Assembly: GCF_014193515.1 (NCBI RefSeq)
Contig: NZ_BLXX01000008.1
Location: 124,001 to 188,000, forward strand
Reading direction: 5' to 3'
Length of the DNA: 64,000 bases
Source: Geomonas silvestris
GTDB lineage: Bacteria; Desulfobacterota; Desulfuromonadia; Geobacterales; Geobacteraceae
Positions 2,782 to 35,891 of the stretch are shown piece after piece. The position numbers were made by a program, and so were the translations under genes. The notes beneath the pieces are model-generated. The model searched no databases, was not told the origin of the DNA, and saw nothing but the letters and a program-made list of their open reading frames with translations. Position 1 is the stretch's first letter. Every line of letters starts with the position of its first letter.

Positions 2782-4182
2782 TCACCAAACCGGCAGGGAG
2801 TCCGCATGGGCAACCGCCTCGGTTCCCGGTACTGCGCCACTGCGGGTAAGGCGCCTGGGTGGGTCGCCATGGGCCGGGTCGGGACTGAAAAAGTGGCAGC
2901 TGTTGCGTCCGAGTTGCTTGCTGCAGTACATGGCGGTACCGGCCTTGAGGAGCTGCTGTTCCTTGGTCTCGCCATCTTCCGGAAAGAGGCTCACCCCGAT
3001 GCTGGCCCCCAGGAAGCAGACCTGCCCCTGCAGGTCGAACGGCTCGAGCAGTGCGCTGGAGATCCGCTCGGCTACGCGCGCAGCATCCTCCCGGCCGGCG
3101 ATTTTCGAGAGGATCACCACGAACTCGCCCCCGTCCAGGCGCGCCACCGTGTCGGTTTCCCGCAGGCACGACTTAAGCCGCACCGCAACCTCCTTCAGGA
3201 TCAGGTCACCGTAGTAGTGCCCGAACTCCTCGTTCGCCTCGCTGAAGCGGTCCAGGTCGATGAACAACAGGGCGAAGCGGGCCCCGTCGCGCTTCCCCTG
3301 CAGGATCAGCTGGTCCAGGCGGTCGTAGAAGAAGCTGCGGCTGGGAAGCGCGGTCAGCTCGTCGTAGTGCGCCATCCGCTCCAGGCGCTGCACTGCGGCC
3401 TTGCGTTCGGTGATGTCGCGAAAGATGATCTGGAAGGCGGGGCTTCCTTCCTGGCCGAAGGGGTGCGCGGTGACTTCGACGTCGACCGGTACGCCGTCCA
3501 GGCGGAGAAACTTCTCCTCCATCCAGGGGACCTCGATACTGCGCTCTTCCAGAAGCCGCAACCGTTCCAGGAACACCTGGTGGTAGTGCGGGTGGACGAA
3601 CTCCAGGATCTCTCTCCCCAACAGATCGTCGCTGCCGGATGCCGCAAGGATCTTGAGCCCTGCGGGGTTGATGTATTCAAAGCGCCCGTCCCGGTAAAGC
3701 GTGATGCCGTAGGGGGAAAGATCGACAAGGTCGCGGTAGCGCTCCAACTGCCGCAGCCCCGGACCCCGCCGAGGGCGCTCCAGGGCCTGGCCGAGCACCC
3801 CGGGGAGCATTTCCAGGTAGGTTTGCTGGTCATCGACCACCAGGTAGTCAACCGCCCCTAGTTTGAGCGCGGCGACCGCCACCGCTTCGCTTCCCTCCCC
3901 GGTGACCATGACGGCTGGGGGAGCCGGATCTCGATCCGCCAACCGGCGCAGCACCTCGAGCCCATCCAGGTTGGCGGGTCGGTACCCGAGCACGACGGCG
4001 CGGTAGCGTGCAGCTTTGAGTGCCTCGAAACATCCGTCGCTGTCGGCGACCGTATCGACGAGGTAGGAGAAGCGCTCCAGGTGGTGTTTCAGCAGGTGGG
4101 CGAGTTCGGCGTTGTTTTCGAGGTGAAGGATTCGGGTCGGCGTGAGGCTGCCAGAGTTGTGGCGCACATTGTCATGAAGCAT
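2782..4182 (-). CDS. Degenerate receiver - PAS - degenerate GGDEF protein with intact I-site
   Basis: The start chosen is ATG at 4182, with GGAG six bases upstream; the longer frame would begin with a TTG lacking a ribosome binding site. This gives about 466 residues. The N-terminal receiver-like domain has RILHLENN where acidic residues are expected, VVLGYRP where the phospho-acceptor Asp should be, and DYLVV where the conserved Lys should be, so phosphorylation is unlikely. A PAS domain ending QIIFRDITERK follows. The GGDEF domain begins MAHYDELTALPSRSFFYDRL, but the signature reads DGGEF, losing a catalytic acidic residue. The inhibitory-site motif RETD sits exactly five residues before it. 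I infer a c-di-GMP-binding effector rather than a cyclase. Confidence 0.85.
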   Translation of the reverse strand: MLHDNVRHNSGSLTPTRILHLENNAELAHLLKHHLERFSYLVDTVADSDGCFEALKAARYRAVVLGYRPANLDGLEVLRRLADRDPAPPAVMVTGEGSEAVAVAALKLGAVDYLVVDDQQTYLEMLPGVLGQALERPRRGPGLRQLERYRDLVDLSPYGITLYRDGRFEYINPAGLKILAASGSDDLLGREILEFVHPHYHQVFLERLRLLEERSIEVPWMEEKFLRLDGVPVDVEVTAHPFGQEGSPAFQIIFRDITERKAAVQRLERMAHYDELTALPSRSFFYDRLDQLILQGKRDGARFALLFIDLDRFSEANEEFGHYYGDLILKEVAVRLKSCLRETDTVARLDGGEFVVILSKIAGREDAARVAERISSALLEPFDLQGQVCFLGASIGVSLFPEDGETKEQQLLKAGTAMYCSKQLGRNSCHFFSPDPAHGDPPRRLTRSGAVPGTEAVAHADSLPVW

Positions 4183-34587: not shown

Positions 34588-34616
34588 TTGACATAGCCAC
34601 TTGCTTGCGCTATCGT
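34588..34616 (+). promoter_or_regulatory. Sigma-70 promoter driving riboswitch 1 and hemerythrin
   Basis: Perfect -35 TTGACA, 17-base spacer, -10 TATCGT. Transcription would start about 25 bases before the GEMM aptamer, which fits it as the leader promoter. Confidence 0.82.
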
Positions 34617-34645
34617 TCCTGCACATAATCTGGAACAACACAGAT

Positions 34646-34755
34646 ACACGACAATACTAAACCATCCGCGAGGATGGGACGGAAAGCCTACAGGGTCTCA
34701 CCGAGACAGCCGGGTCGCCGAAATATCATCAGATATTGGCGACCCGGCTTTTTTT
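34646..34755 (+). promoter_or_regulatory. GEMM-I (GEMM-Ib type, cGAMP-I) riboswitch 1 with terminator
   Basis: The aptamer has a CGAC/GTCG P1 (34649-34652 with 34714-34717), AAACC, then P2 CCATCC-GCGA-GGATGG with its GNRA tetraloop (34662-34677). The GEMM core GGACGGAAAGCC and P3 GTCTC-ACC-GAGAC follow. The residue matching G20 of the Vibrio Vc2 c-di-GMP aptamer is A (34656), the change linked to 3',3'-cGAMP sensing in Geobacter. The expression platform is an 18-bp hairpin (arms 34708-34719 and 34738-34749) with an eight-base T-run. It contains the 3' strand of P1. Ligand binding should hold P1, block the terminator and switch the hemerythrin gene on. Confidence 0.92.
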
Positions 34756-34829
34756 GTGCCTTTTCACCCCGCCGGGACCCAACGCAAACTCTCGAGTTGT
34801 TGTCAAATTCGCACCACCGGAGAGGTCGC

Positions 34830-35261
34830 ATGCCTATTATTGAATGGAATGCAGGTTTTATGCTCGGCATTGGCGAAATCGACCAGCACCACAAGCAGCT
34901 GGTGCAACTGCTCAACGATACCTACGACGAGTTCCGTGCCGGTTCGAGGATCGGCATGCCGGTGATCGACCAGTTGATCGGTCACGCCGAGCGGATCTTC
35001 AGCCTCGAGGAACAGCTGATGCGCGAGAGCTGCTACCCGCAGTTGAGCGAGCACCTGACCGAGCACGAGGGGTTCAGCTGCAGGATCGAGGGGTTCAAGG
35101 CGAACTACACCAACAGCGAGGGGACCTCGATCGAACTGCTCTGGTTTTTGTGCAACTGGGTCACCCACCACTTGCGCGAGACCGACGCCGAACTGGCCCA
35201 GTTCCTCGAGGTGCGCAAGATCCAAAAGCGCCTCAAGAAACCGACCCTGCCGCCACGCTGA
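34830..35261 (+). CDS. Bacteriohemerythrin with an altered iron-ligand motif
   Basis: About 143 residues from ATG at 34830, downstream of riboswitch 1. The fold matches the hemerythrin at 5811: IEWNAGF, IDQHHKQL with the N-terminal His near residue 21, LSEHLTEHEGF, and the final THHLRETDAEL. In the second motif the sequence reads I56-F-S-L-E60, where the other protein has H58-F-A-V-E62, so one iron-binding His is replaced by Ile. A His at residue 52 is one helical turn away. O2 binding may be altered or lost. Expression is predicted to depend on a cyclic dinucleotide. Confidence 0.9.
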   Translation: MPIIEWNAGFMLGIGEIDQHHKQLVQLLNDTYDEFRAGSRIGMPVIDQLIGHAERIFSLEEQLMRESCYPQLSEHLTEHEGFSCRIEGFKANYTNSEGTSIELLWFLCNWVTHHLRETDAELAQFLEVRKIQKRLKKPTLPPR

Positions 35262-35291
35262 CCGCCCCGCCCCCGGGCGCCGAATCGGTCT

Positions 35292-35729
35292 CTAGTTGAT
35301 CGTCTTGGTTACCTCGTTGGAGCGGGGACTCTCGTACCCGGTAGCATCGTAGGTGGTAACCGAGAAGTAGTAGGTCCCCGGCGCCAGTCCGCTCACGGTG
35401 TACCCCTGCACCATTCCGACATCGAGCACGCTGCCGTAGGACCCCGATGCGCTGCCGTAGTAGACTTTGAAACCTGCCGCACCCTCTTGAGGCGGGTCCC
35501 AGGAGAGTTTGGCAGCGCCGCTTTGCACGGCCGAGCCCCCTGCCCCCGGTGCAGTGTCGCCCGGGGCGTTGACAGCACCGGAACCGTTAGAAGTACCGCC
35601 CGTTATCGAGGTCGTAGCCTCCCCCGAACCGCCCGCCGCAGCTCCCCCGCTCCCGCTCCCGCCGCACCCCTGACAGGCAAGCGCCAGGACCAGTACGGTG
35701 CCGGCCAGCACCATTCTCCTTTTCACCAT
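35292..35729 (-). CDS. Lipoprotein-like fibronectin type III protein
   Basis: A 145-residue exported protein controlled by riboswitch 2. The N-terminal basic and hydrophobic signal (RRMVLAGTVLVLALAC) is followed by a probable lipidated Cys19, although the lipobox is imperfect. Gly/Ser/Thr-rich linker residues 22-68 come next. Residues of about 70-145 form a single FN3 domain (AKLSWDPPQEGAAGFKVYYG, then LAPGTYYFSVTTYDATGYES). AAAGGAGG precedes the ATG. It is probably displayed at the cell surface. It converges on the hemerythrin gene with a 30-base gap. Confidence 0.88.
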   Translation of the reverse strand: MVKRRMVLAGTVLVLALACQGCGGSGSGGAAAGGSGEATTSITGGTSNGSGAVNAPGDTAPGAGGSAVQSGAAKLSWDPPQEGAAGFKVYYGSASGSYGSVLDVGMVQGYTVSGLAPGTYYFSVTTYDATGYESPRSNEVTKTIN

Positions 35730-35762
35730 TGCAACCTCCTTTACACGATTGGTGTAGCACGC

Positions 35763-35872
35763 AAAAAAGCCGGGTCGGAGTATCGTTCAGATAACTCGGC
35801 GACCCGGCTGTCTCGGTGAGACCCGTGGGCTTTCCGTCCCATCCTCGCAGATGGTTTAGTATTGTCGTCTAT
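35763..35872 (-). promoter_or_regulatory. GEMM-I (GEMM-Ib type, cGAMP-I) riboswitch 2 with terminator
   Basis: The minus strand carries an aptamer almost identical to riboswitch 1: P1 CGAC/GTCG, AAACC, P2 CCATCT-GCGA-GGATGG (one U-G wobble), GGACGGAAAGCC, and P3 GTCTC-ACC-GAGAC. The residue matching G20 is again A (35860). The terminator pairs AGCCGGGTCG with CGACCCGGCT, followed by six T residues, and uses the P1 3' strand. The logic is the same as riboswitch 1, an ON switch, here for the FN3 lipoprotein gene whose ATG lies 34 bases after the T-run. Confidence 0.92.
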
Positions 35873-35891
35873 CTATGGCCCGGCAATTTTT

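What the first reader, a model, noticed from the sequence alone, without database searches (positions are those of the whole stretch)
34588..35872. Two almost identical cGAMP-type GEMM-I riboswitches face each other around a hemerythrin and an FN3 lipoprotein
Each gene has its own aptamer plus terminator. Both aptamers carry A where the Vc2 c-di-GMP aptamer has G20, at 34656 and 35860. Published work on Geobacter GEMM-I RNAs ties that change to preference for 3',3'-cyclic GMP-AMP. The aptamers share about 70 nearly identical bases in opposite orientation, roughly 1.1 kb apart. This suggests a recent duplication or gene conversion and a co-regulated surface/O2-related module. No cGAMP synthase of the hybrid GGDEF type is in the window.
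Basis: partly seen in the sequence, partly recalled or inferred. Interest (0 to 1): 0.88.

Follow-up and report, generated by a model that had tools for sequence, protein, structure and literature searches.

The report
Two facing cGAMP-type riboswitches in Geomonas
Two RNA switches that very probably sense the bacterial signal molecule cyclic GMP-AMP sit in front of two neighbouring genes in a Geobacter relative; they belong to a well-known switch family, their likeness is ordinary family likeness rather than a recent copy, and the main new point is that a hemerythrin gene has been kept under this signal across most of the genus.

Summary
Both aptamers are significant RF01051 hits. Both carry A at the Vc2-G20 position (34656, 35860) and all 11 ligand contacts listed for the cGAMP riboswitch structure 4YAZ. 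Each has a terminator that competes with its aptamer, so both are best read as ordinary GEMM-Ib cGAMP ON-switches, for a bacteriohemerythrin and an FN3 lipoprotein. The genome, a Geomonas close to G. limicola, has 27 GEMM-I RNAs, 21 of this type, and a GacA-type Hypr synthase on another contig.

The hemerythrin aptamer is 77/77 identical to its G. limicola orthologue but 72/77 to its neighbour, and closest to the lead aptamer of a hemerythrin operon in other species. The facing pair occurs in 2 of 48 family genomes; this hemerythrin behind a GEMM-Ib leader occurs in 17 of 19 genus genomes. It lacks one canonical iron-ligand histidine, so 'O2-related' is uncertain. FN3 genes behind GEMM riboswitches are already in print. 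Ligand binding was not tested. New member of a known kind.

The parts
34588..34616 (+). sigma-70-like promoter of the hemerythrin unit (TTGACA-17-TATCGT)
   Evidence: 10 of 12 matches; 2 sites found in the region against 0.7 expected; same hexamers in G. limicola
34643..34727 (+). GEMM-Ib (cGAMP-type) aptamer of the hemerythrin leader, P1 included; A at the G20 position = 34656, C at the C92 position = 34718
34708..34755 (+). intrinsic terminator that reuses the aptamer 3' strand (hairpin 34708-34749, U-tract 34749-34755)
34830..35261 (+). single-domain bacteriohemerythrin, 143 aa, second canonical His ligand replaced by Ile56
35262..35291 (.). 30-bp gap between the two convergent stop codons, no hairpin with U-tract seen on either strand
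35292..35729 (-). FN3-domain protein with lipoprotein-like signal peptide, 145 aa
   Evidence: lipobox judged by eye against a recalled pattern
35763..35809 (-). intrinsic terminator of the FN3 leader (hairpin 35809-35768, U-tract 35768-35763)
35790..35873 (-). GEMM-Ib aptamer of the FN3 leader, P1 included; A at the G20 position = 35860, C at the C92 position = 35799

Best explanation
Two ordinary GEMM-Ib riboswitches, each controlling one gene at transcription. Without ligand, the 3' strand of the aptamer pairs with a downstream arm and forms a terminator. When 3',3'-cGAMP (made by the GacA-type enzyme encoded elsewhere in the genome) binds, the aptamer keeps that strand, the terminator does not form, and RNA polymerase reads on into the hemerythrin gene (+) or the FN3 lipoprotein gene (-). 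The two genes are thus members of one cGAMP regulon of about 21 aptamers and happen to lie tail to tail. The aptamers resemble each other because the subclass is very conserved, not because one was just copied from the other. Shown by sequence: family, contact residues, terminators, overlap of the two folds, conservation in G. limicola, presence of a Hypr-type GGDEF. Inferred: the ligand, the ON direction and the physiological role.
For: RF01051 hits. All 11 nucleotides listed as cGAMP contacts in 4YAZ (PMC7288161, passage) are present in both aptamers. The 21 GEMM-Ib aptamers of the genome support the fold: 5 pairs with changes on both sides (1 in P1, 4 in P2), 0 of 500 shuffles as high, slid controls 0-1. 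A script found a terminator made from the aptamer's 3' strand in 19 of 21; of the 2 misses, L014 has one on reading and L022 appears to lack one. A pilM cGAMP riboswitch works as such an ON-switch (PMC9262584, passages). A GacA-like protein with the Hypr serine (GHLIGS, GGDEY) is at G000:C10:179894-180364, best solved match 6d9m.
Against: No binding or termination was measured. In the predicted FN3 terminator the ligand-binding C (35799) is left unpaired, unlike in the hemerythrin leader. The P3 closing pair is A.C in both aptamers (6 of 21 share this), and P3 base pairs are only 82% kept in the set. One G. sulfurreducens GEMM-I (omcST) responds to both ligands, so A20 alone does not prove selectivity.
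Confidence: 0.86

Rival explanations
1. The two aptamers arose from one another by recent duplication or are kept alike by gene conversion.
For: 91-94% complementary arms in opposite orientation. Within G000 the FN3 aptamer's nearest relative is its neighbour (71/77 against 69/77 for the next).
Against: Orthologues are nearer than neighbours in both genomes: hem-hem 77/77, FN3-FN3 74/76, hem-FN3 72/77 in each, with shared diagnostic differences. The hem aptamer has four nearer relatives elsewhere in G000. It is the closest of 21 to the lead aptamer of the hemerythrin operon of other species (mean 0.964 against 0.916 for the FN3 aptamer). The 60 bases upstream and the leader beyond the terminator are unrelated.
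Confidence: 0.05
2. The aptamers sense c-di-GMP, or both dinucleotides, rather than cGAMP selectively.
For: Same Rfam family as the c-di-GMP class; a dual-sensing GEMM-I is known in G. sulfurreducens (omcST, PMC6456294 section 8); the genome has 34 GGDEF match rows (some two pieces of one domain), of which only one was read with the Hypr serine.
Against: A at the G20 position and the whole 4YAZ contact set. The aptamers are typical of the genome's 21 GEMM-Ib aptamers, and five separate aptamers with G at that position are available in the same genome for c-di-GMP.
Confidence: 0.1
3. The facing pair is a device: transcripts that read past the terminator-less junction carry the antisense of the other switch, so the two units interfere with each other.
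For: No hairpin with U-tract in the 30-bp gap (25 bp in G. limicola), and no run of five or more T on either strand from the stop codon to the opposite leader, in both species. The arrangement is conserved in G. limicola.
Against: The terminator scan is insensitive: it also missed both riboswitch terminators. Rho-dependent ends cannot be excluded. No RNA data. No facing GEMM-I pair within 5 kb was seen in the other 17 genus genomes (read by eye). Many convergent genes lack a clear terminator (general knowledge).
Confidence: 0.07

Closest known systems
GEMM-Ib / cGAMP (cAG) riboswitch, e.g. Gs1761 (pgcA) and pilM of Geobacter; Rfam RF01051
   Same: A at the G20 position, full contact set, P1-P2-P3 fold, terminator built on the aptamer 3' strand
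   Different: different genes controlled; two units convergent with about 1.1 kb between aptamers
GEMM-regulated FN3 protein genes: Gbem_1796, 1798, 1799 of G. bemidjiensis (PMC2996986, passages) and KN400_1971 of G. sulfurreducens (PMC13194489, passages)
   Same: FN3 protein, proposed surface protein, behind a GEMM riboswitch
   Different: in G. bemidjiensis a triplicated set; here a short protein with one fn3 domain facing a hemerythrin gene
Bacteriohemerythrin (NCBIfam NF033749)
   Same: single domain, above the curated cut-off (92.5 against 84 bits), six of seven canonical ligand positions
   Different: second His ligand is Ile; placed behind a cGAMP-type riboswitch
Hypr GGDEF GacA (GSU1658 / Gmet_1914)
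   Same: response-receiver domain at the N-terminus and GGDEF domain with serine in place of the usual aspartate
   Different: not in the window; activity untested

Membership tests
GEMM-I riboswitch (RF01051) | covariance-model score over the gathering threshold | tested here: met
   45.4 and 43.7 bits against 35
GEMM-I riboswitch (RF01051) | conserved P1/P2/P3 fold with covariation | tested here: met
   21 paralogues: 95.8% of cells paired, 5 pairs changed on both sides, 0 of 500 shuffles as high; P1 GAUA/UAUC to GGUA/UACC. The four P3 pairs counted have no two-sided change and are 82% paired.
GEMM-Ib (cGAMP) subclass | A at the Vc2 G20 position | tested here: met
   34656 and 35860
GEMM-Ib (cGAMP) subclass | all 4YAZ ligand-contact nucleotides (G8 A11 A12 U13 A14 C15 A41 A42 G74 C75 C76) | tested here: met
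   11 of 11 in both (list from the passage; sequences)
GEMM-Ib (cGAMP) subclass | selective binding of cGAMP over c-di-GMP | not testable with these tools
   needs in-line probing or ITC
GEMM-Ib (cGAMP) subclass | Hypr GGDEF (cGAMP synthase) in the genome | tested here: met
   L046, G000:C10:179894-180364, GHLIGS...GGDEY; motif read in 24 of the 30 GGDEF loci fetched; activity not tested
Transcriptional ON-switch | terminator mutually exclusive with the aptamer | tested here: met
   terminator 5' arm starts inside P3 (34708; 35809) and takes up the aptamer's 3' strand
Transcriptional ON-switch | ligand raises read-through | not testable with these tools
   needs single-round transcription or a gacA deletion
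O2-binding bacteriohemerythrin | seven iron ligands H,H,E,H,H,H,D (recalled; positions read from the DcrH alignment) | tested here: not met
   six of seven; the second His is Ile56 in the window and in G. limicola
O2-binding bacteriohemerythrin | family profile score | tested here: met
   NF033749 92.5 bits against 84; Pfam Hemerythrin 40.6 against 25.3
Bacterial lipoprotein with FN3 domain | fn3 domain over cut-off and lipobox | tested here: inconclusive
   fn3 31.0 bits against 25; lipobox (Cys18) judged by eye only; no NCBIfam hit

The most novel reading that the evidence does not exclude
The facing pair is a reciprocal antisense switch. With cGAMP high, both convergent units read through the terminator-less junction, and each transcript then carries the reverse complement of the other leader, which is also nearly that of its own (about 72 of 77 bases). 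The two cGAMP-induced genes would damp or exclude each other once both are strongly on. This layout is conserved in two species.
Probability: 0.07. Interest if true: 0.65.

Novelty: new member of a known kind. Interest (0 to 1): 0.3.

Why it matters
It places a hemerythrin in the cGAMP regulon of Geomonas and its nearest kin: in 17 of 19 genus genomes this hemerythrin clade lies behind a GEMM-Ib leader, as the tail of an operon in 15 and as a stand-alone unit in 2. The regulatory RNA has stayed with the gene across an operon rearrangement. If the ligand assignment holds, cGAMP control in these bacteria covers a diiron-type protein besides cytochromes, pili and surface proteins. The loss of an iron ligand in part of that clade makes it testable whether O2 binding is what is being regulated. 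The pair itself is ordinary.

Tried and rejected
Recent duplication / gene conversion: rejected. A wider 'module': CheX > hemerythrin >< FN3 < MscL was seen in G000 and G. limicola; in the other 46 family genomes no hemerythrin match (E up to 1e-15) lay next to an FN3 match (E up to 1e-8) in the listings. Hemerythrin relatives outside the genus behind a riboswitch: none found; the 8 more distant loci (L151-L158) gave no Rfam hit, and the 7 loci from other genera (L076, L078-L083) gave no R1 hit. Direction of the operon change: not resolved. In the rpoB-region tree the two stand-alone genomes form a clade (100/100) outside the group of 14 operon genomes (87/98); the order at the base, with the two genomes lacking the gene, is unresolved (G025 was left out as truncated, G036 had no match).

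Literature, open-access library only: hemerythrin with riboswitch and cyclic (6 papers), GEMM with hemerythrin (5 papers), hemerythrin/cGAMP/Geobacter (15 of 48 listed, none of them with all three), Geomonas with riboswitch (1 paper). Only the G. bemidjiensis paper among these looked relevant; its passages name eight hemerythrins and GEMM-linked FN3 genes but do not link the two. (GEMM-Ib or fibronectin) was badly posed and says nothing; one search replaced it. Kellenberger 2015, Nelson 2015 and Ren 2015 were not read; they may list such genes. No structure prediction was run.

Weaknesses: the promoter/terminator scan did not recover the two riboswitch terminators, so its silence about the gap is weak; the T-run check is the better evidence. 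Facing pairs were counted by eye from listings, in draft genomes and with at most 150 candidates scored per genome; the genus listing was cut and not used. In the first hemerythrin tree row L083 was in a wrong frame; it was dropped and the tree rebuilt; L075, L079 and L082 were in neither tree. A first script for GGDEF motifs found nothing because its pattern was too strict; it was replaced. The motif was read in 24 of 30 fetched GGDEF loci; L034, L036, L050, L054, L055, L056 and four match rows without locus were not resolved, so a second Hypr enzyme is not excluded.

Full report
What is there. At gathering score the window contains two Rfam hits, both RF01051: 34646-34722 (+) and 35870-35795 (-). 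With P1 included the aptamers run 34643-34727 and 35873-35790. The first lies before a 143-aa hemerythrin (34830-35261), the second before a 145-aa FN3-domain protein with a lipoprotein-like signal (35729-35292, - strand). The genes converge with 30 bp between the stop codons. Upstream is a CheX-like gene, downstream MscL and an OmpA-family gene. A sigma-70-like promoter precedes the hemerythrin leader at 34588-34616; the scan found none for the FN3 leader.

Ligand type. Both aptamers have A at the Vc2-G20 column (34656, 35860). A review table (PMC7288161, passage) lists the nucleotides that contact cGAMP in structure 4YAZ; all 11 are present in both aptamers. The genome has 27 RF01051 hits: by reading the alignment, 22 have A at this position (21 of the GEMM-Ib type plus L003) and 5 have G. 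Across the 21, the fold is supported by changes on both sides in 5 of 18 pairs, against a shuffle mean of 1.0, 0 of 500 shuffles as high, and 0-1 in slid controls. Binding was not tested here.

Mechanism. The terminator of each leader is made from the aptamer's 3' strand: 34708-34749, -30.6 kcal/mol, and 35809-35768, -24.9 kcal/mol. The full leader folds at -53.1 and -46.6 kcal/mol; with P1 enforced the folds give -30.3 and -27.9 kcal/mol, without counting ligand. This is the arrangement described for the pilM cGAMP ON-switch, where the terminator takes up C75 (PMC9262584, passages). In the hemerythrin leader C75 (34718) is paired in the terminator; in the FN3 leader it is left unpaired although the strand up to G74 is used. 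A script found such terminators in 19 of 21 GEMM-Ib leaders; L014 was missed by the script but has one on reading, and L022 seems to lack one.

The synthase. Of 34 GGDEF match rows in the genome, 30 came with loci and 24 of those could be read at the specificity position; one, L046 (G000:C10:179894-180364), carries serine (GHLIGS) with GGDEY in a 464-aa frame. Its best solved relative is 6d9m, an endolysin fusion with a response-receiver diguanylate cyclase whose sequence has the same serine; this fits the T4 lysozyme-Gmet_1914 construct of PMC6456294 (passages). The GGDEF domain of the window (2902-3372) has the ordinary D.

Are they a recent copy? No. G019 is taken to be G. limicola, because the named record L141 has the same match at the same coordinates. 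There the layout is the same. Hemerythrin aptamers of the two species are 77/77 identical, FN3 aptamers 74/76, and hemerythrin against FN3 72/77 in both, with the same diagnostic differences. In a comparison of 39 GEMM-Ib aptamers (21 of G000, 18 of G019) the best match of each of the two is its orthologue. Within G000, 11 of 351 pairs are more alike than this one and 9 tie; the hemerythrin aptamer is nearer to L024, L010, L025 and L026 than to the FN3 aptamer. The 60 bases upstream are unrelated between the two leaders.

Where the hemerythrin unit comes from. Of 48 family genomes, 26 have a hemerythrin match at E 1e-15. In 15 genus genomes the best one (42-50% identity) has a GEMM-Ib hit on the same strand about 1.4-1.5 kb upstream (15 of 15 loci L060-L074, most cut by the locus edge; whole positions). 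Of these 15, a motif scan tagged a DUF4382-type frame directly before the hemerythrin in 9; 3 of the 6 untagged were printed and show a frame of the same kind; L061, L073 and L074 were not looked at further. The four printed in full (L060, L062, L065, L072) also have a small secreted protein first. Pfam confirms DUF4382, and a Ysc84/SYLF protein behind the following riboswitch, for L065. Nine of nine named Geomonas, Citrifermentans and Geobacter sp. loci (L142-L150, probably in part the same genomes) show the leader upstream. In the window's genome the parts are apart, each with its own GEMM-Ib: the small protein (L024), DUF4382 (L025; no hemerythrin behind it), SYLF (L023) and the hemerythrin (L018). 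The hemerythrin aptamer is the closest of the 21 to the lead aptamers of the nine named operons (mean 0.964, maximum 76/77; L024 next at 0.952; FN3 aptamer 0.916). The window, G. limicola and operon hemerythrins form one group (95/97) against other hemerythrins. So riboswitch and gene have stayed together. Whether the operon was split or assembled is open. Of 19 genus genomes, 17 have this hemerythrin behind GEMM-Ib; in G026 and G027 no such case was seen.

The hemerythrin itself. Against DcrH (2avk and others) the second ligand His aligns with Ile56. The 11 other hemerythrins in the tree set have His there; of the 17 in the riboswitch-linked group, 12 have His, 3 Gln and 2 (window, G. limicola) Ile. 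The other six ligand positions are kept (ligand set recalled). An O2 role is therefore not safe.

The FN3 side. 24 of the 30 FN3 loci fetched, from the 28 of 48 genomes with a match, hold a GEMM-Ib hit; the window and G. limicola are among the 24. The association is thus general in the family. It was reported for G. bemidjiensis in 2010 (PMC2996986, passages) and for one G. sulfurreducens gene in 2026 (PMC13194489, passages).

The facing layout. RF01051 hits facing each other within 5 kb were seen only in G000 (this pair and L002/L003) and G. limicola (the same two); none in the 17 other genus genomes, the nearest being 5.2 kb in G012 (by eye). Neither species shows a hairpin with U-tract in the gap. 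Mutual antisense is possible but unsupported by any RNA data.

Verdict. A correct observation of two members of a known riboswitch subclass; the duplication story is wrong, the O2 story is doubtful, and the lasting point is the genus-wide link between cGAMP-type leaders and this hemerythrin.

Noticed in passing
L167 191-276 (+) and 2593-2509 (-) (G000:C18:50890-50975 and 53292-53208); L123/L119 in G. limicola: A second facing GEMM-I pair, before two homologous CxxCH lipoproteins. One aptamer has G at the G20 position; the other has A there with U before it, in a non-Ib background. Of its five nearest non-orthologous matches four keep G and one (L162) has C, so it looks like an independent switch toward the cGAMP contact set.
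   Followed up: partly
L162 1591-1505 (G003): A GEMM-I aptamer over the gathering score with C, not G or A, at the G20 position (read from the alignment): a possible further ligand variant.
   Followed up: no
L060-L074, L142-L150: Geomonas operon: GEMM-Ib, small secreted protein, DUF4382, hemerythrin, in many followed by another GEMM-Ib before a Ysc84/SYLF protein; scattered into separate GEMM-Ib units in the window's genome.
   Followed up: yes
A5 columns 38 and 78 (P3 closing position): In G000, C at the P3 closing position (6 of 21 aptamers, both window ones included) goes together with GAC rather than GGC before the GGAAAG core (7 of 21); L010 is the exception. Possibly a coupled tertiary contact.
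   Followed up: no
L006 and L007: Two GEMM-Ib aptamers on different contigs (C9, C11) identical over 78 bases: a better candidate for recent duplication than the window pair.
   Followed up: no
L166 453-869 (G000:C1:623282-623668): A second hemerythrin about 2 kb downstream of another GEMM-Ib leader (L019) on the same strand, with two other genes between; similar spacing in G. limicola.
   Followed up: partly
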